This document shows positions 47,653 through 59,157 of a stretch of 64,000 bases of DNA, piece after piece. This DNA is from Planomonospora sp. ID82291 (GTDB lineage: Bacteria > Actinomycetota > Actinomycetes > Streptosporangiales > Streptosporangiaceae). Every line of letters begins with the position of its first letter. The stretch's first letter is position 1. Both the position numbers and the translations under genes were made by a program. The stretch is from assembly GCF_015711645.1 (NCBI RefSeq), contig NZ_JABTEX010000003.1:1054001-1118000 (forward strand). The letters run 5' to 3'. The notes under the pieces are model-generated. The model was not told where the DNA came from and did no database searches. It worked only from the letters and a program-made list of their open reading frames with translations.

Positions 47653-48366
47653 TTGAGCGAGGTGTGGGTGACTCTCACCACAGCCCATCCGGGGCCGCCC
47701 GCGTGGGTCGTGCTGCTGTCCGCGCTGACCGCCCTGGCGGTGGTGGCGTGGTCCACCTCGTGGCAGCTCTCCCGGGGCCTGGTCACCATCGCCCACGAGG
47801 GCGGGCACGCGGTGATGGCGCTGCTCACCCGGCGCAGGCTGCAGGGCATCCGGTTGCACTCCGACACCTCGGGCGTGACGCTCACCCGCGGCAGGCCCAC
47901 CGGTCCCGGCATGATCCTGACGGCCGCCGCCGGTTATGTCGCCCCCTCCCTGCTGGGACTGGGCGGGGCGTGGCTGACCTCCGCCGGCTACGTCGCCGTG
48001 CTCATCGCCGTCGTGATCACGCTGCTCGTCTGCATGCTGGTGGTGATCCGCAACCTGTTCGGGGCGGTGAGCCTGCTGGCCGTCGGCGGAGCGATCACCG
48101 CGCTCACCTGGTACGCCCCCGCGGACGTCGACGCGGTCATCGCCTATCTGACCGTCTGGTTCCTGCTGTTCGGCGGGATCCGGCCGATCCTCGAACTGGG
48201 CCGCAAGCGCCGCCACGGCCGCGCCCCCGACTCCGACGCCGACCAGCTCGCCCGGCTGACCTTCCTGCCCGGCGGATTCTGGGTGCTGCTCTTCCTGCTG
48301 GTCTCGGGAGCCGCCCTGCTGGCCGGCGCCTACCTGCTGGTGCCGCTGCCGCTCAGCCTGCCCTGA
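47653..48366 (+). CDS. M50-family site-2-like membrane metalloprotease
   Basis: 237 residues, mostly membrane helices. 'LVTIAHEGGHAVMALLTRRR' gives the HExxH zinc site in the second helix. Later segments include 'LTAAAGYVAPSLLGLGGAWL', 'VAVLIAVVITLLVCMLVVIR' and 'AVIAYLTVWFLLFGGIRPIL'. There is no PDZ domain, as in the compact actinomycete M50B subfamily. These proteases cut membrane-bound regulators or have unknown roles. TTG 47653 follows GAGGGGAAGTGACC. It sits just upstream of the lanthipeptide cluster but I see no direct evidence that it belongs to it. Confidence 0.85.
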   Translation: MSEVWVTLTTAHPGPPAWVVLLSALTALAVVAWSTSWQLSRGLVTIAHEGGHAVMALLTRRRLQGIRLHSDTSGVTLTRGRPTGPGMILTAAAGYVAPSLLGLGGAWLTSAGYVAVLIAVVITLLVCMLVVIRNLFGAVSLLAVGGAITALTWYAPADVDAVIAYLTVWFLLFGGIRPILELGRKRRHGRAPDSDADQLARLTFLPGGFWVLLFLLVSGAALLAGAYLLVPLPLSLP

Positions 48367-48382
48367 GCGGTCCTGTCGGCTT

Positions 48383-48453
48383 TCCCGGCGAACCCCGGCG
48401 AACCCCGGCGAACCCCGGCGAACCCTGGTGAACCCCGGCGAACCCTGGTGAAC
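48383..48453. repeat. 10-bp tandem repeat (AACCCCGGCG)
   Basis: Six units from 48391 to 48450 plus a partial one before, two of them AACCCTGGTG. It lies after the M50 stop; the period is not a multiple of three, so it is noncoding. The next 100 bp turn AT-rich, probably the promoter of the lanthipeptide cluster. Confidence 0.8.
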
Positions 48454-48602
48454 GAAAAGCCGTGAATATTACATATCAGGCGATCATGACCGGTGTTGAC
48501 TTGTCGGATTCATTGACATAGCCGAGCATTATTTGGTTTTGTTGACAGTTAACTTGGTTGATGGTTTTATGGCGGAGTTGTTCCCCTCCGGCGAGAGTCG
48601 GC

Positions 48603-49403
48603 ATGCTGTCTCACATCCATCCCGCGGTGACGATCACGACACTGCTTTTCCCCGCCTCGTTGAGCATAACGGTCCTTCTCTGGCTGCGGCTCCGACGGCT
48701 CCGGAGGGAGCAGGCGGCCGAGCGGGACAGGGCCGTGGCGCGGGCGCGCGAGGACTTCACCCGCGACATGCACGATCTCGTGGGCCACTGGCTCTGGCTC
48801 GCGTCGATCAAGAGCGAGCTGGCCTACCGGCAGGCGCGCGACGACGCCCGGCTCCGCGGCGAACTCGCCGAGGCCCTCCAGGCGGTACGGCACGCCGCCC
48901 ACGCCGTGCGCAACGCCTCCCGGTCCCAGCGGACCCTCTCCCTGCACGGTGAGGCCGTACGGGCCGAGGCGCTGCTGTGGAGCCTGGGAGCCTACTGCCT
49001 GACCCGGGTGGACGCCGCCGGCCTGCCATCGGACCTGAACAGGGCGCTGGGCGCCGTGGTCAGGGAGGGCGTCACCAACATGCTGCGGCACAGCGCGGTC
49101 CGCAAGTGCGTGATCGAGACGGCCCGGCACGACGGCCGGCTGCGGCTGACCGTCGCCAACGACGGCGCGGCCGGTCCGGGGCGGTTCCCCGCCGGCCGCT
49201 CCCGTCCGGCGGCCCCGTCCGGCGCCCTCGCCGCCGAGCCCGCCGCCGGCTCCCCGCCCGTCCCCGGAACGCGTTCGCGAGCCGGGGGCCTGGCCAACCT
49301 CCGGCAGCGGATGGCCCGTCTCGGGGGCACCGTGGAGGCCGCGGCCGGACCGGACGGATGGTTCCGGCTGGTCGTCGACGTCCCCGTGGACTTTTCCGAA
49401 TAA
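48603..49403 (+). CDS. NarL-type sensor histidine kinase of the lanthipeptide cluster
   Basis: 266 residues. One N-terminal membrane helix ('HPAVTITTLLFPASLSITVL'), a coiled linker of Arg/Glu, then the HisKA_3 box 'FTRDMHDLVGHWLWLASIKS' with the phospho-His in 'MHDLVGH'. The ATPase part shows the N box 'REGVTNMLRHS' and 'GGLANLRQRMARLGGTVEAA'; it has a Pro/Ala-rich insert of about 30 residues before the last G box. It opens the lanthipeptide cluster and no response regulator follows; the nearest, of the matching LuxR type, is at the far end of the cluster (58390-59046). Confidence 0.85.
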   Translation: MLSHIHPAVTITTLLFPASLSITVLLWLRLRRLRREQAAERDRAVARAREDFTRDMHDLVGHWLWLASIKSELAYRQARDDARLRGELAEALQAVRHAAHAVRNASRSQRTLSLHGEAVRAEALLWSLGAYCLTRVDAAGLPSDLNRALGAVVREGVTNMLRHSAVRKCVIETARHDGRLRLTVANDGAAGPGRFPAGRSRPAAPSGALAAEPAAGSPPVPGTRSRAGGLANLRQRMARLGGTVEAAAGPDGWFRLVVDVPVDFSE

Positions 49404-49549
49404 CTTTCACTTCAACGGCTCCACCTCGCGCGACGCATATCTTCACCATCGGACCTGTGAATTATGCATATGCGAGCGGTGGAACTTGTAACTGGAAATA
49501 GCCCCCTACGTCCGGGATTCTCTTCATGGAAGCCAGCAAGGAGATCCCC

Positions 49550-52186
49550 GTGAACGACCAGTACGAGCTTTACTGCCTCGCGGATCCGCTCTTTTACGAC
49601 ACGCTCGACGGCAGCCGCGGCGGCCACCCCGATTTCCCCCTCGCGTCACGGGAGGTCCCGGACGGCTGGGCGCACCAGGCGACCGACACGTGGATGCACT
49701 ACGCGCCCGCCGAGGCGGCGGTGCCGCCGCAGGGCTGGAAGATCCACGTGTCGGCGTGCGTGGAGGACGCCGAGCGCGCCATGGAAGCGGTGTGGGACTA
49801 CTGCGTGCCGCGGGACATCCCGTTCAAGTTCCTGCGCAGCCGGCCGGTCATGACCATGCTGAACTCCAAGGCCGCCGCGCGGGGATCGAGCGGCAAGCTG
49901 GTCACGGTCTACCCGCTGGACGACAGCCAGCTCGAACTCGTCCTGAAGGAGCTCGACGTCCTGCTGCGGGGGGTGCGGGGGCCCTACATCCTCAGCGACC
50001 TCCGGTACGGCGACGGCCCGCTCTTCGTGCGGTACGGCGGTTTCGTCCCGCGCCACTGCCCGGGGAAGGACGGCGAGCCGGTGCTGGCCCTGGAGGACGG
50101 GAACGGCGATCTCGTCCCGGACGTCCGGGGGCCCTCCTTCAGCCTCCCTCCGTGGATGACGCTGCCGGCCTTCCTCGAACCCCACCTGGCCGCGCGCAAC
50201 GCCGTCACCACCTCGGGCCTGCCGTACGAGATCGAGAGCGTCATCCAGTTCTCCAACGGCGGCGGGGTCTACCTCGGCCGGGAGACGCGGACCGGCCGGC
50301 GGGTGGTGCTGAAGGAGGCGCGCCCGCACGCCGGGCTCGACACCATGGACCGGGACGCCGTGACCCGGCTGGCGCACGAGCGGGACATGCTGGAGCGGCT
50401 GTCGGGGCTGGAGGCCGTGCCCGCGCTCGTCGACCACTTCACTCTGGGCGACCACCACTTCCTGGTCCAGGAGTTCGTCGACGGCAACCCGCTGCAGCGG
50501 CTCCTCGTGCAGAGGTACCCGCTGACCCGCGCCTCCTGCGGTCCCCGTGAGCTCGCCGACTACACCGCCTGGGTGCTCGACGTGCTGCCCGCGGTCCGGG
50601 CGGCCGTCGCGTCCCTGCACGGGCGCGGGGTGGTCTTCGGCGACCTGCACCCGAACAACATCCTCGTCACCGCCGAGGGCCGCATGGTCCTGATCGACTA
50701 CGAGGTCGCCACCCTCGCCGAGGACCGCGGACGCGCCACGCTCGGTCACCCCGCCTTCGCCGCGCCCCGCGACCGGCACGGCGTCGAGACGGACGCCTAC
50801 GCCCTGGCCTGCCTCTGCATCGGGCTGTTCGCCCCCCAACTGATGATCATGCAGATGCTCGACCGGGGCAAGGCCGTCCAGCTGGCGGGCCTGATCAAGG
50901 AGGCCTTCCCCGTCCCGCCCGAGGTGATCGACGACGCGGTCCGGACGATCACGGGTCCGGAGCCGGTGACGTCGCGGCCGGCACCCCGGCCGGGCCACGA
51001 CGACTGGCCCGAGGTCCGCGACGCGATGGTCCGCGCCATCCTGGCGAGCGCCACCCCCGACCGCGACGACCGGCTCTTCCCCGGCGACCCCGCCCAGTTC
51101 GAACCCGGTGGCGGCCTCGCCTTCGCCCACGGGGCCGCCGGCGTGCTCTACGCGCTGGACGCCGCCGGGGCCGGGCGCTTCCCCGAGCACGAGGAGTGGC
51201 TGCGGCGCCGGGCGCGCGACCTGGGACGGGGGGCGCGCATCGGCTTCTACGACGGGCTGCACGGGGTGGCGCACGTCCTGGACCGGCTCGGCCACCGCCA
51301 GGACGCGCTGGACATCCTGGACAGGTGCCTGCGCGAGAGATGGGAGCTGCTCGGCACCGGCCTGTTCGGCGGCGTGGCCGGGATCGGCCTGAACCTCCTG
51401 CACCTGGCCCGGACCACCGGCGAGCCCGCGCTCGCGGACACCGCGCTGCGCGCCGCCGGCATCTGCGCCGACCGGCTCGGCGGCCCCGAGGACGTGCCCG
51501 AGCTCAGCGGCGGAACCGGCCCCCGCGCCGGTCTGATGTACGGCTCGGCCGGCTCCGCCCTGCTCTTCCTGCACGCCTACGAGCACACCGGCGACACCGC
51601 GCTGCTGGAGTACGCCGCCGTGGCGCTCCGCCAGGATCTGCGGCGGTGCCGGACCACCCAGGACGGAACGCTCCAGGTCGACCAGGGCTGGCGCACCCTG
51701 CCCTATCTCGACGAGGGGTCCGTGGGCATCGGCCTGGTCCTCGCCCGCTACCTGGCCCACCGCGACGACGAGGGGTTCACGGCCGCGCTGGACGCCTGCC
51801 GGCTCGTCACCCGCGGGAGATACTTCGTGCAGCCCGGCCTGTTCACCGGCCGGGCCGGCATGATCGCGGCTCTCGGCGGAGGGCTGGGCCCCTTCCCCGA
51901 CGACCCCGGCACCGACCTGGCCGAGCAGATCCGGGGGCTGGGCTGGCACGCGCTGCGTCACGGCGGCGGACTGGCCTTCCCCGGCGACCAGTTGCTCCGG
52001 CTCTCCATGGACTTCGCGACCGGCACGGCCGGAGTCCTGTTCGCGATGAGCACCGCGCTGAACGACCGCCCGGTGTTCCTCCCCTTCATCCAACCGCCCG
52101 GCGGTGCAGGCGCTCCGGCAACGGTGTCGCCTGCGCACGAACCCGCCGAGCGGTCCCGTCCCGACGAGCAACCGAAGGAGGTGTGA
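49550..52186 (+). CDS. Class III lanthipeptide synthetase LanKC (RamC-like)
   Basis: 878 residues from GTG 49550, which has AAGGAG 6 bp upstream; the ATG at 49526 has no site. Three domains: an N-terminal lyase (about 1-200; 'YELYCLADPLFYDTLDG', 'KFLRSRPVMTMLNSKAAARG'), a kinase (about 220-450; 'VVLKEARPH', 'VVFGDLHPNNILVTAEGRMV', 'LIDYEVA') and a LanC-like cyclase (about 520-850; 'GFYDGLHGVAHVL', 'GLFGGVAGIGLNLLHLA', 'GLMYGSAGSALLFLHAYEHT'). The cyclase lacks the Cys-Cys-His zinc ligands, marking class III rather than class IV. It phosphorylates Ser/Thr of the precursors, eliminates them and forms lanthionine/labionin rings. Confidence 0.95.
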   Translation: MNDQYELYCLADPLFYDTLDGSRGGHPDFPLASREVPDGWAHQATDTWMHYAPAEAAVPPQGWKIHVSACVEDAERAMEAVWDYCVPRDIPFKFLRSRPVMTMLNSKAAARGSSGKLVTVYPLDDSQLELVLKELDVLLRGVRGPYILSDLRYGDGPLFVRYGGFVPRHCPGKDGEPVLALEDGNGDLVPDVRGPSFSLPPWMTLPAFLEPHLAARNAVTTSGLPYEIESVIQFSNGGGVYLGRETRTGRRVVLKEARPHAGLDTMDRDAVTRLAHERDMLERLSGLEAVPALVDHFTLGDHHFLVQEFVDGNPLQRLLVQRYPLTRASCGPRELADYTAWVLDVLPAVRAAVASLHGRGVVFGDLHPNNILVTAEGRMVLIDYEVATLAEDRGRATLGHPAFAAPRDRHGVETDAYALACLCIGLFAPQLMIMQMLDRGKAVQLAGLIKEAFPVPPEVIDDAVRTITGPEPVTSRPAPRPGHDDWPEVRDAMVRAILASATPDRDDRLFPGDPAQFEPGGGLAFAHGAAGVLYALDAAGAGRFPEHEEWLRRRARDLGRGARIGFYDGLHGVAHVLDRLGHRQDALDILDRCLRERWELLGTGLFGGVAGIGLNLLHLARTTGEPALADTALRAAGICADRLGGPEDVPELSGGTGPRAGLMYGSAGSALLFLHAYEHTGDTALLEYAAVALRQDLRRCRTTQDGTLQVDQGWRTLPYLDEGSVGIGLVLARYLAHRDDEGFTAALDACRLVTRGRYFVQPGLFTGRAGMIAALGGGLGPFPDDPGTDLAEQIRGLGWHALRHGGGLAFPGDQLLRLSMDFATGTAGVLFAMSTALNDRPVFLPFIQPPGGAGAPATVSPAHEPAERSRPDEQPKEV

Positions 52187-52190
52187 ACCC

Positions 52191-52319
52191 ATGGTCCTTC
52201 TCGACCTGCAGTCCCTCGAGGCCCCCACCGGCGGCGGCCACGGCGGCGGCAGCACGCTGACCGCGCTGACCTGCAACTCCGGCAAGCCCAGCAACCTCAG
52301 CGTCGCGCTCTGCCACTAG
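52191..52319 (+). CDS. Class III lanthipeptide precursor, copy 1
   Basis: 42 residues; ATG 52191 follows the synthetase stop by 4 bp with AAGGAGGTG just upstream. The leader has the class III box 'LLDLQSLEAP' (residues 3-12), as in RamS-type leaders. The core has Thr13, a Gly-rich stretch 'GGGHGGG' (14-20) and two ring motifs, S21-xx-T24-xxx-C28 and S34-xx-S37-xxx-C41, joined by 'NSGKP'. This is the SapB-like two-ring layout for labionin or lanthionine. The likely leader cut is after Pro12 by the cluster's prolyl oligopeptidase. Confidence 0.92.
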   Translation: MVLLDLQSLEAPTGGGHGGGSTLTALTCNSGKPSNLSVALCH

Positions 52320-52372
52320 TCCGCGGTTCCCGATCCATCCCCCGAACGACCACCAGAACTGGAGTGATCCCC

Positions 52373-52501
52373 ATGGTCCTTCTCGACCTGCAGTCCCTCG
52401 AGGCCCCCACCGGCGGCGGCCACGGCGGCGGCAGCACGCTGACCGCGCTGACCTGCAACTCCGGCAAGCCCAGCAACCTCAGCGTCGCGCTCTGCCACTA
52501 G
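52373..52501 (+). CDS. Class III lanthipeptide precursor, copy 2 (identical)
   Basis: Identical to copy 1 over all 129 bp, including synonymous positions and the TAG stop; only the intervening 53 bp and its own ribosome site (GGAG before ATG 52373) differ. Identity at nucleotide level points to recent duplication or gene conversion and should double the dose of one peptide rather than give two products. A perfect hairpin 10 bp after the stop separates it from the transporter genes. Confidence 0.92.
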   Translation: MVLLDLQSLEAPTGGGHGGGSTLTALTCNSGKPSNLSVALCH

Positions 52502-52510
52502 CGGCGTGAG

Positions 52511-52544
52511 TGTCCGGGACGGCCTGCGCAGGCCGTCCCGGACA
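52511..52544 (+). terminator. Perfect hairpin (attenuator) after the precursors
   Basis: TGTCCGGGACGGCCTGC joined directly to its complement GCAGGCCGTCCCGGACA: a 17-bp perfect inverted repeat, followed by TTTCCTTT. It probably lets the precursors be expressed more strongly than the downstream transporters, as between ramS and ramA in streptomycetes. Confidence 0.85.
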
Positions 52545-52580: not shown

Positions 52581-54467
52581 GTGCGATCGTCGGATCGGCT
52601 GGTCGCCCGGATCGTGCGGCGCAGCGGCCCGTGGCTCGGCGTCCTGGCGGTCACCGCCGTGACCGGTGCGCTCGCGCAGCTGGCGCTCCCGTTCGTCCTG
52701 GGCCGGACGGTCGACGCCCTCGTCTCGGCCGCGCCCTCCCGCGGGACGTGGCTGGGCGCCTGCGTCACGGTCGTGGCCGCGGCCGTGGCGTGCGACGCCC
52801 TCGGGGTGTGGGCGACAGGGGCGTCCAGCACCCGGGCCTCGGAATGGCTGCGCCACCTGACCGTCCGGCACGTGCTCGGCGTCGGCCCGGCGCTGAGCCG
52901 GCGCTTCTCCGAAGGGGAACTGGCCACCCGGGCGGGTGTCAACGCCGAAGAGGCGGGCCGCGCACCGGAGACCCTCGTCACCGGGGCGGCGCTGGTCATC
53001 CCCACCGCGGGGGGCCTGGTGGCGCTCACCCTCATCGACCTGTGGCTGACGCTGACCCTGGCCGTCGGCCTCGTCGCCATCGTGCTCGTGCTCCGGACCT
53101 TCCTGCGGGTGAGCACCACCCTGGCCGGCGGTTACCAGGAGGCGCAGGGCGACATCGCGGCTCGGCTGACCGACGCCCTGGCCGGGGCGCGCACGATCGC
53201 CGCCGCCGGGACCCTCGCCGAGGAGAAGGCGCGGGTGCTGGCCCCGCTCCCCCGGCTGCGCGCGCACGCCATGGAGATGTGGCGGACCAACGCCCGCGCG
53301 GGCGTGCGGGCCGGCGTCGTGGTGCCGCTGCTGGAGGTGGCCGTGCTCGGAGTCGGAGGATTCCGCCTCGCCGCGGGCGACCTGTCCGCGGGAGAGCTGT
53401 ACTCGGCCGCCCGCTACGTCGTCCTCGGCGCCGGACTCGGTGCGGCGCTGGGCTACGCGGGCCGCCTGGCGCGGGCGCGGGCCGCCGCGGGACGGATCGG
53501 CGAGCTGCTCTCCGAACCGCGCAGGACCCACGGCCGCCACCGCCTGCCCCCCGGCCCCGGCACCCTGGAGCTGAGAGGCGTCACCGCCGACGGCCTGTCC
53601 GAGGTCGACCTGCTGGTCCCGGGCGGATGCGCGGTGGCCGTGGTCGGCCGGTCGGGTGCGGGCAAGTCGGTCCTCGCCGCCCTCGCGGGCCGCCTGGCCG
53701 ACCCCTCCGCCGGCGTGGTGCTCCTCGACGGCGTCGCGCTGCCGGAGTTGTCCCGGGAGGCGCTGGGCGGGGCCGTCGGGTACGCCTTCGAGCGCCCCGT
53801 CCTGATCGGTGAGACCGTCGCCGACGCCATCGGCCTCGGCCTGCGGGAGACCGGCCCCGGACCTGCTCCCGGGGCGCCGGCCGGCCCGCCCGCCCCGGAG
53901 CGGGTGGAGGCGCTGCGCGCGGCCGCCCGCGCCGCGTGCGCCGACGCCTTCGTCAGGAGGCTCCCGGCGGGGTACGGCACCCCGCTCGCCGACGCCCCGA
54001 TGTCCGGCGGGGAGCGGCAGCGGCTCGGCCTGGCCCGCGCCTTCGCGCACGGCCGGCGCCTGCTCGTCCTGGACGACGCCACCTCCAGTCTGGACACCCT
54101 GACCGAGCACCGGGTGAGCGAGACGCTCGCCGGTGAGCTGGGAGGCCGTACCCGGCTGATCGTGACCCACCGGGTCGCGACCGCGGCGGCGGCCGACCGG
54201 GTGGTCTGGCTGGAGGACGGCCGGGTCCGCGGTTACGACCGGCACCACCGCCTCTGGGACGATCCCGGTTACCGGGCCGTCTTCGAGGTACGGCCGTCCG
54301 GGCCGGGCGAACCGGAACCCCGTCCGAGCCGGACCGGCGGGACGGACCGGACCGGCGGAACGGAGCACGCCGACGGGACGGACCGGACCGGCGGAACGGA
54401 CCGGACCGGTGCCGCGGCACCCCGTCCGAGCCGGACGGACGCCGCCGAGCGGGCGGGCAGACCGTGA
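52581..54467 (+). CDS. ABC exporter half-transporter 1 (lanthipeptide cluster)
   Basis: 628 residues. GTG 52581 with GGAGG 5 bp upstream. N-terminal six-helix membrane domain ('LGVLAVTAVTGALAQLALPF' at first), then the ATPase: Walker A 'VVGRSGAGKSVLAA', signature 'MSGGERQRLGLARAF', Walker B 'LLVLDDATSSLD' and the H-loop 'IVTHRVATA'. The C-terminal about 50 residues are a Thr/Gly/Arg/Asp tail built of short repeats (GGTDRTGGTE-like). It corresponds to RamA of the SapB locus and probably forms a heterodimer with the next gene. It overlaps that gene by GTGA. Confidence 0.93.
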   Translation: MRSSDRLVARIVRRSGPWLGVLAVTAVTGALAQLALPFVLGRTVDALVSAAPSRGTWLGACVTVVAAAVACDALGVWATGASSTRASEWLRHLTVRHVLGVGPALSRRFSEGELATRAGVNAEEAGRAPETLVTGAALVIPTAGGLVALTLIDLWLTLTLAVGLVAIVLVLRTFLRVSTTLAGGYQEAQGDIAARLTDALAGARTIAAAGTLAEEKARVLAPLPRLRAHAMEMWRTNARAGVRAGVVVPLLEVAVLGVGGFRLAAGDLSAGELYSAARYVVLGAGLGAALGYAGRLARARAAAGRIGELLSEPRRTHGRHRLPPGPGTLELRGVTADGLSEVDLLVPGGCAVAVVGRSGAGKSVLAALAGRLADPSAGVVLLDGVALPELSREALGGAVGYAFERPVLIGETVADAIGLGLRETGPGPAPGAPAGPPAPERVEALRAAARAACADAFVRRLPAGYGTPLADAPMSGGERQRLGLARAFAHGRRLLVLDDATSSLDTLTEHRVSETLAGELGGRTRLIVTHRVATAAAADRVVWLEDGRVRGYDRHHRLWDDPGYRAVFEVRPSGPGEPEPRPSRTGGTDRTGGTEHADGTDRTGGTDRTGAAAPRPSRTDAAERAGRP

Positions 54468-56242: not shown

Positions 56243-58258
56243 ATGATCTATCCCCCCGCCGAGCGGCAGCCGGTCACCGACCTCCTCCACGGGCGCGCCG
56301 TACCCGATCCCTACCGGTGGCTGGAGGACCCGGCGAGCCCGCGGACCCGCGGATGGGCGGCCGCCCAGGAGGAGCTGTGGCGGGCGCACGCCGCCGCCCT
56401 GCCGGGCCGCGACCGCTGGCACGCCCGCGTGGCCGAACTCGGCTCCGCCGGAACGGTCACACCGCCGCTGTGGCGGGGGACGCGCCGCTTCTTCCTGCGC
56501 CACGACCCGGGGCGGGCGCACCCGGTGCTGTACACCGCCGGTCCGGACGGGGCGGAGGAGGCGCTGGTCGACCCCGAGGAGATCGATCCCTCCGGGTCGA
56601 CGGTCCTGGACGCCTGGCAGCCCGACCTGACCGGCCGGCTGCTGGCCTACCAGCTGTCGCGGGGCGGGGACGAGCGGTCGGAGCTGCACGTCATGGACGT
56701 CGGCGCCCGGCGGACCGTGGACGGCCCGATCGACCGCTGCCGCTACGCGCCGGTGGTCTGGCTCCCGGACGGCACGGCGTTCTTCTACGTCCGCGACCGG
56801 CGGGTGTGCCTGCACCGGCTCGGCACGCCCGCCGACGAGGACGCCGTCGTCTGTGCGGCGGAGCGCTCCTACGGCCTGGGCTCCAGCCCCGACGGCCGCT
56901 GGCTGACGGTCGCGGCGCCGGCCGGGGCCGGCAACGACGTCTGGCTGGCCGACCTGGCCGCGGGCCCGCCCGAGCGGCCCGGCCTGCGGACGGTGCAGGA
57001 GGGGACGGGCGCGGTCACGGTGCCCGCCGTGGGCCGCGACGGCCGGCTGTACCTGCTCACCACCCTGGACGCGCCCACGGGCCGGCTCTGCGTCGCCGAC
57101 CCGGCCGACCCCGGTCCGGGGGGCTGGCGGGAGCTGGTCGGCCCGGACCCCGAGGCGGTGATCTCCGACTTCGCGCTCCTGGACGGTCCCGGCCGCCCGG
57201 TGCTCCTCGTCGGCCGGACCCGGCACGCGATCAGCGAGATCGGGGTGCACGACCCGGTCACCGGCGAGCGGGTGGGCGGGGTCCCGCTGCCCGGGCTCGG
57301 CGCCGTGGGCCGGATGTCCGCGCGCCCCGAGGGCGGCTGCGAGGTGTGGTTCTCCTACACCGACGGCGTCACCCCGGGCGGCGTGCACCGCTACGACGCG
57401 CGCACCGGGCGGACCGCGCTCTGGGCCGCCGCGCCCGGCGCCGTCGACGTGCCCGAGCTGGAGTCCCGCCAGATCGTCTACACCTCGGCCGACGGCACGC
57501 CGGTGCGGATGGTCGTGCTCGCCCGGCCCGGGACCGGGCCCCGCCCGGCGATCCTGTACGGCTACGGCGGGTTCGGGATCCCGCTGACCCCCTCCTACTC
57601 GGCCTACATCCTGCCGTGGGTGGAGGCCGGCGGCGTCTTCGCGCTCGCCCAGGTGCGCGGGGGCGGCGAGGAGGGGGCGGCCTGGCACCGCGACGGCATG
57701 CTGGAGCGCAAGCAGAACTCCTTCGACGACTTCACCGCCGCCGCGGAGCGCCTGATCGCCGACGGCTGGACCACGGCCGGGATGCTGGCGGCCTGCGGGG
57801 AGTCCAACGGCGGGCTGCTGGCCGGGGCCGCGATCACCCAGCGGCCCGAGCTGTTCGCCGCCGCCGCCTGCTCGGCCCCGCTGCTCGACATGGTCCGCTA
57901 CGAGCGCTCCGGCCTGGGCCCGTCCTGGCGAGGGGAGTACGGCTCCGCGGAGGACCCGGAACAGCTGGGGCACCTGCTGGGCTACTCGCCGTACCACCGG
58001 GTCCGCGAGGGCGTGGACTATCCGGCGACGCTGCTGGCCTCCTTCGGCGGCGACTCCCGGGTGGACCCTCTGCACGCGCGGAAGATGTGCGCGGCGCTGC
58101 AGCACGCCACGTCGGGCCGGCGGCCGATCCTGCTCCGCCACGAGGACGGCGTCGGGCACGGCGTCCGGGCCGCCGGCCGGGCGGCCGGCCTGGCGGCGGA
58201 TCTGCTGGCCTTCCTCGCGGCGCACACCGGGCTGGAGCCCCCGCCGGCCGGGCGGTGA
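56243..58258 (+). CDS. Prolyl oligopeptidase, probable lanthipeptide leader protease
   Basis: 671 residues, S9A family. The N-terminal beta-propeller has several 'GxWL..sPDG'-like blades; the C-terminal hydrolase has 'PAILYGYGGFGIPLTPSYSA', 'GGEEGAAWHRDGMLERKQNS', the catalytic Ser in 'ACGESNGGLLAGAA', the Asp in 'FGGDSRVDPLHARKM' and the His in 'DGVGHGV'. No signal peptide, so it is cytosolic. It follows half-transporter 2 by 36 bp in the same direction. Prolyl oligopeptidases encoded in class III clusters (FlaP-type) cleave modified leaders after Pro; here Pro12 of the precursor fits. Its size leaves only small substrates access. Confidence 0.92.
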   Translation: MIYPPAERQPVTDLLHGRAVPDPYRWLEDPASPRTRGWAAAQEELWRAHAAALPGRDRWHARVAELGSAGTVTPPLWRGTRRFFLRHDPGRAHPVLYTAGPDGAEEALVDPEEIDPSGSTVLDAWQPDLTGRLLAYQLSRGGDERSELHVMDVGARRTVDGPIDRCRYAPVVWLPDGTAFFYVRDRRVCLHRLGTPADEDAVVCAAERSYGLGSSPDGRWLTVAAPAGAGNDVWLADLAAGPPERPGLRTVQEGTGAVTVPAVGRDGRLYLLTTLDAPTGRLCVADPADPGPGGWRELVGPDPEAVISDFALLDGPGRPVLLVGRTRHAISEIGVHDPVTGERVGGVPLPGLGAVGRMSARPEGGCEVWFSYTDGVTPGGVHRYDARTGRTALWAAAPGAVDVPELESRQIVYTSADGTPVRMVVLARPGTGPRPAILYGYGGFGIPLTPSYSAYILPWVEAGGVFALAQVRGGGEEGAAWHRDGMLERKQNSFDDFTAAAERLIADGWTTAGMLAACGESNGGLLAGAAITQRPELFAAAACSAPLLDMVRYERSGLGPSWRGEYGSAEDPEQLGHLLGYSPYHRVREGVDYPATLLASFGGDSRVDPLHARKMCAALQHATSGRRPILLRHEDGVGHGVRAAGRAAGLAADLLAFLAAHTGLEPPPAGR

Positions 58259-58389: not shown

Positions 58390-59046
58390 TCAGACGCGCG
58401 AGCGGTGGCGGACCAGTCCCACCTCGCTGAGGTCGTCCGGCCAGAGCCAGCCGTCCTGCTTGGCGATCCTGATCGCCTCCACGCGGGTCCTCGCGCCGAC
58501 CTTCGCCAGGATCCGCGAGAGGTAGTTGCGGACGGTGCCCCCCGACAGGTAGAGCCGGTCGGCGATCTCCTCGACCGGGGCCCCCTCGGCGGCCACCTTC
58601 AGCACCTCCAGTTCCCGGCAGGTCAGCGGGTTCTCCCTGGCGCTGAGCGCGGCGACGGCCAGGTCGGGGTCGACGACCTGCTCGCCGCGCGCGACCCGGC
58701 GCACCACCCCGGCGAGCTGGCCGGCCGGGGTGTCCTTGACGACGAAGCCGCGCGCCCCGGCCTCCAGTGCCCTGCGCAGCGCGGCCGGCGTCGCGAGGCC
58801 GGTGAGGATGACCGCGCGGCAGCCGGGCAGGGCGCGCCGCAGCTCCGCCGCCGCGGTGATGCCGTCGGCGCCGGGCAGGCCGATGTCGATCAGCGCGACG
58901 TCGGGACGGTGGCGCAGGCACGCCTCCACCACCTCGTCGCCGTGCCCCGCCTCTCCGACGACCTCGATGTCCTCCTCCGTCGAGAGCAGGGCGGCCATCG
59001 CCCCCCGAACCAGGTGCATGTCCTCGGCTATCAGGACATCTATCAC
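58390..59046 (-). CDS. LuxR-type response regulator (RamR-like)
   Basis: 218 residues. Receiver: 'VIDVLIAEDMHLVRGAMAAL', the phospho-Asp in 'DVALIDIGLPGADGI', 'AVILTGLATPAALRRALEAG', 'GFVVKDTP'. LuxR helix-turn-helix: 'NPLTCRELEVLKVAAEGAPV', 'EEIADRLYLSGGTVRNYLSR', 'ILAKVGARTRVEAIRIA'. It resembles RamR, activator of SapB genes, but unlike some orphan regulators it keeps its phospho-acceptor. GTG 59046 has GAGAGGGAG upstream; the ORF to 59064 lacks one. It faces the cluster end and may pair with the kinase at 48603-49403. Confidence 0.9.
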   Translation of the reverse strand: MIDVLIAEDMHLVRGAMAALLSTEEDIEVVGEAGHGDEVVEACLRHRPDVALIDIGLPGADGITAAAELRRALPGCRAVILTGLATPAALRRALEAGARGFVVKDTPAGQLAGVVRRVARGEQVVDPDLAVAALSARENPLTCRELEVLKVAAEGAPVEEIADRLYLSGGTVRNYLSRILAKVGARTRVEAIRIAKQDGWLWPDDLSEVGLVRHRSRV

Positions 59047-59157
59047 GCGCAGTCTCCCTCTCACGGCGACACACGGTCCGTCTCCCGGGCCCCGGTGCCA
59101 CCCAGGGGAACCGGCCGACTACGGCGTTACCCGAATTCGGCCCGCAGGAACGGCGGA

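What the first reader, a model, noticed from the sequence alone, without database searches (positions are those of the whole stretch)
52191..52501. Two nucleotide-identical precursor genes
The 129-bp frames match at every base, while the spacer does not. Silent-site identity implies recent duplication or ongoing conversion and a pressure for dose. Most multi-precursor clusters have diverged copies.
Basis: seen in the sequence. Interest (0 to 1): 0.65.

Follow-up and report, generated by a model that had tools for sequence, protein, structure and literature searches.

The report
Twin lanthipeptide genes kept identical
Two neighbouring copies of a gene for a small developmental-type peptide are letter-for-letter identical because the bacterium keeps copying one over the other, an old duplication held uniform by recombination, in an otherwise ordinary peptide gene cluster.

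Summary
Two 129-nt genes (52191-52319, 52373-52501) are identical at every base; identity starts 3 nt before the ATG and ends exactly at the stop codon. They encode the precursor of a SapB/AmfS-type, flavipeptin-like class III lanthipeptide in a complete cluster: LanKC, two ABC exporters, prolyl oligopeptidase, response regulator. Codon bias does not explain the identity (P about 1e-9 to 1e-11). Nor is it a recent duplication: flanks and spacer are orthologous to those of two-copy relatives, while species-specific changes are shared by both copies within a genome. The sister Planomonospora parontospora has three copies with identical spacers; its copy 1 differs from its later copies at four diagnostic codons, and both window copies carry the later-copy state. 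So copy 1 was overwritten from copy 2 (or lost in a copy-number cycle) after the split: concerted evolution of an old tandem array. Relatives' copies are under purifying selection. 'Dose' is plausible but untested. 'Most clusters have diverged copies' fails here: near-identity is common. Identical class III precursors are already published (PMC7268733). Ordinary system, unusually clear evolutionary footprint.

The parts
52191..52319 (+). precursor gene copy 1 (SapB/AmfS-family, flavipeptin-like class III lanthipeptide precursor, 42 aa)
   Evidence: NF033212 55.0 bits (cut-off 25), Pfam RamS 51.2 bits; carries copy-2 type alleles at codons 2, 9, 10, 14
52373..52501 (+). precursor gene copy 2, nucleotide-identical to copy 1
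52188..52190 (+). CCC before copy 1 ATG, shared with copy 2 and unlike orthologous copy-1 flanks; likely 5' edge of the conversion tract
   Evidence: copy-1 flanks end GAACGA (P. parontospora), AAGCAC (P. rosea), GAACAG (G057); window GAACCC
52175..52183 (+). ribosome binding site of copy 1, AAGGAGGTG, overlapping the 3' end of the LanKC gene
   Evidence: sequence; conserved upstream of copy 1 in relatives
52361..52364 (+). weaker ribosome binding site of copy 2 (GGAG)
   Evidence: sequence; orthologous in relatives
52320..52372 (+). 53-nt spacer, orthologous to the spacers of P. rosea and G057, unrelated to the outer flanks
52511..52544 (+). perfect inverted repeat / hairpin after the array (no T-run), probable terminator, attenuator or 3' stabiliser separating precursors from exporter genes
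   Evidence: z -5.3; a hairpin in the same place, often of different sequence, in nearly all relatives
49526..52186 (+). class III lanthionine synthetase LanKC (lyase-kinase-cyclase)
   Evidence: NF038151 1095 bits, cut-off 575
52581..54467 (+). ABC exporter 1 (start chosen after AGGAGG; the mechanical ORF begins at 52506)
   Evidence: PF00664 and PF00005
54464..56206 (+). ABC exporter 2
   Evidence: PF00005
56243..58258 (+). prolyl oligopeptidase (S9), probable leader protease (FlaP-like)
   Evidence: PF02897 and PF00326; present with every LCH-type precursor whose locus could be read, absent with the others
58390..59064 (-). LuxR-type response regulator (AmfR/RamR-like by position; homology to them not tested)
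   Evidence: PF00072 and PF00196
48558..49403 (+). histidine kinase-like protein next to the cluster, conserved in close relatives; membership uncertain
   Evidence: PF07730

Best explanation
The two genes are an old tandem duplication of the precursor of one flavipeptin-like (SapB/AmfS-family) class III lanthipeptide. They are kept identical by recombination between the copies (gene conversion or template switching, with occasional gain and loss of a copy), and the last event in this lineage wrote the copy-2 sequence over all of copy 1. The homologous stretch is only the coding sequence, because spacer and flanks have long diverged, so the identity ends at the gene edges. Both genes are transcribed behind lanKC (inferred), translated from two different ribosome sites, and give the same peptide. 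LanKC dehydrates and cyclises two SxxTxxxC / SxxSxxxC ring motifs (inferred from family), the prolyl oligopeptidase cuts after Pro12 (inferred from FlaP), and the exporters release it. Benefit (inferred): more of a single product, with mutations in one copy erased by the other.
For: Family and cluster. Old duplication: upstream, spacer and downstream of window vs P. rosea z = 17.9, 9.4, 27.7; vs G057 13.7, 7.6, 13.2; paralogous flanks at chance. Flanks group by position, CDS by genome: upstream 0.52 within vs 0.70-0.79 orthologous, CDS 0.987 within vs 0.886 orthologous. Paralogue-shared vs orthologue-shared sites in the window clade 32:1, 14 of the 32 silent. Topology test rejects copy-wise grouping, AU p = 5e-5. 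Sister P. parontospora (LanKC 93%): copy 1 GTA, CTG, GAA, GGG, later copies GTC, CTC, GAG, GGC, both window copies the latter; sister has S17 and ACC in copies 1 and 2 (and the aligned third), window H17 and ACG in both. Expansion intermediates with identical spacers: P. parontospora (46 nt twice), Streptosporangium. Footprint: 8 nt TAAACCGC from copy 1's end sits after copy 2 in P. rosea. Codon 2 GTA in 13 of 23 first copies and 0 of 30 later ones, GTC in a first copy only in the window. Purifying selection between copies in relatives: nonsyn/syn 0.46 (leader) and 0.38 (core) vs neutral 2.75 and 3.13.
Against: Dose benefit, transcription and processing are not tested. Conversion cannot be separated from loss of the original copy 1 out of a three-copy array, nor proved by read data. 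Exchange reaching codon 2 and the bases before the ATG needs a breakpoint at the very edge of homology. Site-pattern counts over many genome pairs are not independent. Synonymous divergence from the sister is modest (0.094 per codon), so from that split alone zero differences has P = 0.017.
Confidence: 0.82

Rival explanations
1. Copy-number cycling alone: the ancestor had three copies as in P. parontospora, and unequal exchange deleted the original copy 1 with one spacer, leaving the two already identical later copies behind copy 1's flank.
For: P. parontospora copies 2 and 3 differ only by a 6-nt glycine-repeat indel and have identical spacers; three- and four-copy arrays with repeated spacers occur in Streptosporangium.
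Against: The crossover must lie left of codon 2, where copies 1 and 2 share only a few bases; several relatives show partial overwriting (core but not leader) without a change of spacer, which fits conversion better.
Confidence: 0.3
2. Fresh duplication: the second copy arose very recently and has had no time to diverge.
For: Zero differences between copies.
Against: Identity stops at the CDS edges, whereas a new tandem copy would bring flank with it; spacer and both ribosome sites are orthologous to those of two-copy relatives.
Confidence: 0.04
3. Constraint: codon bias or a conserved RNA or coding element keeps both copies identical without exchange.
For: GC3 is 0.945; the protein is strongly conserved.
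Against: Silent sites differ between species while agreeing within genomes; codon-usage null 1e-9 to 1e-11.
Confidence: 0.02
4. Assembly or polishing artefact: one copy, or two copies with a few differences, made falsely identical.
For: Read data not available.
Against: Unique flanks for each copy; orthologous two-copy or three-copy loci in independent assemblies; a 129-nt repeat is bridged by ordinary reads.
Confidence: 0.04

Closest known systems
Flavipeptin cluster (FlaA/FlaKC/FlaP) of Kribbella, class III lanthipeptide with prolyl oligopeptidase
   Same: LanKC, prolyl oligopeptidase, leader LLDLQ..E.P followed by a Gly/His-rich linker and a STLT..C..PSNLS..LCH core; Kribbella relatives found here have Pro exactly 12 residues before the core, as published for FlaP cleavage (PMC10885120)
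   Different: Kribbella loci read here have one precursor; the window has two identical ones, a shorter linker (Pro at -9) and closer kin in Streptosporangiaceae. FlaA's own sequence was not compared.
SapB (RamS) / AmfS morphogens of Streptomyces
   Same: same precursor family models (NF033212, PF19402), two Ser/Thr-x-x-Ser/Thr-x-x-x-Cys motifs, LanKC plus two ABC genes plus LuxR regulator
   Different: prolyl oligopeptidase present; two precursor copies; morphogen activity unknown
[quoted passage not shown] 2020, PMC7268733)
   Same: identical precursors in one class III cluster
   Different: Firmicute; identity of the peptides is reported, no analysis of DNA identity or conversion seen in the passages read
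Concerted evolution of duplicated genes by gene conversion (e.g. the mtrA pair of methanogens, PMC4632066, abstract only)
   Same: paralogues kept alike by exchange over an old duplication
   Different: here the unit is a 129-nt RiPP precursor, 53 nt apart, with array expansion intermediates

Membership tests
SapB/AmfS-family class III lanthipeptide precursor | match above curated cut-off to NF033212 / PF19402 | tested here: met
   55.0 bits (cut-off 25) and 51.2 bits (cut-off 24.3)
SapB/AmfS-family class III lanthipeptide precursor | LxLQ leader motif and two S/T-x2-S/T-x3-C ring motifs | tested here: met
   LLDLQ; S21-x-x-T24-x-x-x-C28 and S34-x-x-S37-x-x-x-C41 in the translation
SapB/AmfS-family class III lanthipeptide precursor | adjacent three-domain LanKC synthetase | tested here: met
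   NF038151 1095.5 bits; RamC_N, kinase and LanC-like domains
SapB/AmfS morphogen | mature peptide with lanthionine rings that promotes aerial growth | not testable with these tools
   needs mass spectrometry and a bioassay
Flavipeptin-type (FlaP-processed) subgroup | prolyl oligopeptidase in the cluster and Pro in the leader before a Gly-rich linker | tested here: met
   POP at 56243-58258; 27 of 27 readable LCH-type loci have it, 0 of 26 others
Flavipeptin-type (FlaP-processed) subgroup | cleavage after that Pro by the clustered protease | not testable with these tools
   needs enzyme assay
Gene pair in concerted evolution | paralogues more alike than orthologues while the duplication predates the species split | tested here: met
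Gene pair in concerted evolution | direct observation of exchange | not testable with these tools
   footprints only

The most novel reading that the evidence does not exclude
Recombinational homogenisation is a selected, lineage-specific mode of RiPP precursor evolution: in Streptosporangium and Planomonospora-type genomes arrays are kept uniform in the product-coding core (leaders may differ) for dose of one peptide, while in Microbispora the same arrays are released and diverge copy by copy.
Probability: 0.3. Interest if true: 0.5.

Novelty: new member of a known kind. Interest (0 to 1): 0.38.

Why it matters
It shows how a bacterium can hold several copies of a natural-product precursor at one sequence instead of letting them diversify. 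Searching the held library for 'concerted evolution' or 'gene conversion' with lanthipeptide or RiPP found no paper that by title or abstract treats this. The locus set gives expansion, overwritten and diverged states side by side, so whether copy number serves dose or diversity becomes directly testable. For genome mining it warns that identical precursors are real and should not be collapsed as artefacts.

Tried and rejected
Sigma-70 promoter and T-run terminator scans around the array gave nothing; the hairpin was found by fold and repeat search. Fresh duplication, codon bias and sequence constraint were tested and rejected. Checked whether Pro12 tracks the protease: it does not strictly, since POP-less Microbispora-type leaders also have Pro; the core type tracks it. 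My copy finder required strict leader motifs and missed precursors in several loci (L086, L116-L118, L122, L123), which were left out of the counts. Spacer orthology to Streptosporangium could not be shown (z 1.0 and -0.3), so the age claim rests on P. rosea, G057, P. parontospora and the conserved codon 2.

Full report
WHAT IS THERE. The two frames at 52191-52319 and 52373-52501 are identical over 129 nt; the identical stretch is 132 nt (52188-52319 and 52370-52501) and ends exactly at the stop codon. The 42-aa product MVLLDLQSLEAPTGGGHGGGSTLTALTCNSGKPSNLSVALCH matches the SapB/AmfS-family model NF033212 (55.0 bits, cut-off 25) and Pfam RamS. Around it lie LanKC (49526-52186, NF038151 1095 bits), two ABC exporters, an S9 prolyl oligopeptidase (56243-58258) and a LuxR-type response regulator on the minus strand. 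The whole genome contains no further copy.

IS IDENTITY MORE THAN CHANCE? Two independent codon draws for this protein would agree everywhere with P of about 10^-11.3 using the cluster's own codon usage (GC3 0.945) and 10^-9.4 using that of 108 homologous precursor genes. Silent sites are free to change: the CDS differs from Planobispora rosea at silent sites that both copies within each genome share.

OLD DUPLICATION, RECENT IDENTITY. So the two-copy state is older than those splits. Yet within this trio base differences are shared by both copies of a genome (32 paralogue-shared against 1 orthologue-shared site), and a tree that groups copies by position is rejected (AU p = 5e-5). Upstream regions group by position and CDS by genome.

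DIRECTION AND INTERMEDIATES. The closest relative found, Planomonospora parontospora JCM 3093 (L125, LanKC 93%), has three copies separated by two identical 46-nt spacers, a tandem expansion caught in place. Its copy 1 carries GTA, CTG, GAA, GGG at codons 2, 9, 10 and 14, its later copies GTC, CTC, GAG, GGC; both window copies carry the later-copy set. The bases just before the window's first ATG (CCC) also look like those before copy 2 and unlike those before orthologous first copies. P. parontospora copies have Ser in the glycine linker and ACC at codon 22 where both window copies have His17 and ACG. Copy 1 was therefore overwritten from copy 2, or lost from a three-copy array, after the split. 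In P. rosea an 8-nt piece TAAACCGC from the end of copy 1 sits behind copy 2 in front of the old stop region, a footprint of exchange in the other direction (interpretation inferred).

HOW GENERAL. In 341 genomes of the family 193 have this precursor family. I read 43 genomes with two or more tandem copies. Many pairs differ by few bases inside the CDS while flanks are at chance; the window pair is the only one with no difference at all. Streptosporangium (g6) homogenises the core (412 paralogue-shared against 55 orthologue-shared codons) but keeps leader differences (66 against 116); Microbispora (g65) shows almost only orthologue-shared changes. These counts pool overlapping genome pairs, so they describe and do not test. 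Relatives' copies are under purifying selection (nonsynonymous/synonymous 0.46 and 0.38 against 2.75 and 3.13 expected), so both copies probably make product.

HOW IT WORKS. Shown: two copies, two distinct ribosome sites (AAGGAGGTG overlapping the end of LanKC; GGAG), and a strong hairpin after copy 2 (52511-52544, z -5.3) with a hairpin in the same place in nearly all relatives. Inferred: co-transcription with LanKC, the hairpin raising precursor over exporter message, ring formation at two S/T-x2-S/T-x3-C motifs, leader cleavage after Pro12 by the prolyl oligopeptidase as FlaP does after Pro(-12) (PMC10885120), trimming of the Gly-rich remainder by an M1 aminopeptidase, of which the genome has three candidates. 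Every readable LCH-type locus among L065-L124 has the oligopeptidase (27 of 27) and no other type does (0 of 26). The gain from two identical genes is most simply dose of one peptide; that is not proved here.

KNOWN OR NEW. The system is a flavipeptin-like member of the SapB/AmfS class III lanthipeptides. Identical class III precursors were reported before (13 in Bacillus cereus, PMC7268733). Concerted evolution is a known process; I found no paper in the held library on it for lanthipeptide or RiPP precursors, which is weak evidence of absence because most subscription journals are missing.

Noticed in passing
56243-58258; L065-L124, L125-L181: The prolyl oligopeptidase gene is present with every readable PSNLS..LCH-type precursor (27 of 27 in L065-L124) and absent with the ENSSLS..CG and other core types (0 of 26), where a response regulator often follows the second ABC gene directly.
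   Followed up: partly
52511-52544 and the same place in relatives: A strong hairpin without a T-run follows the last precursor in nearly all relatives, with different sequence in different genera (e.g. CCGAGCCCTGAGCTG in Acrocarpospora).
   Followed up: partly
L120 / L130 (Planomonospora sp. ID67723): A syntenic cluster with a 74% identical LanKC carries a quite different single precursor lacking Pro12 (MALLDLQALESATKGGPDSTVSLLLCSHHDSTLSAVC) and lacks the oligopeptidase, suggesting joint swap of precursor and protease.
   Followed up: no
L125 6001-9200 (P. parontospora): Three precursor copies; the third has two extra glycines in the linker while spacers are identical, so glycine-repeat slippage adds length variants.
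   Followed up: no
47653-49403: An M50B-type metallopeptidase and a histidine kinase upstream of LanKC are conserved in Streptosporangium, Planobispora and Planomonospora relatives; their link to the cluster is unknown.
   Followed up: no
L133, L137, L140 and other Nonomuraea loci: Nonomuraea has a single precursor with a different linker (..DVASGG) but the same core type and oligopeptidase.
   Followed up: no
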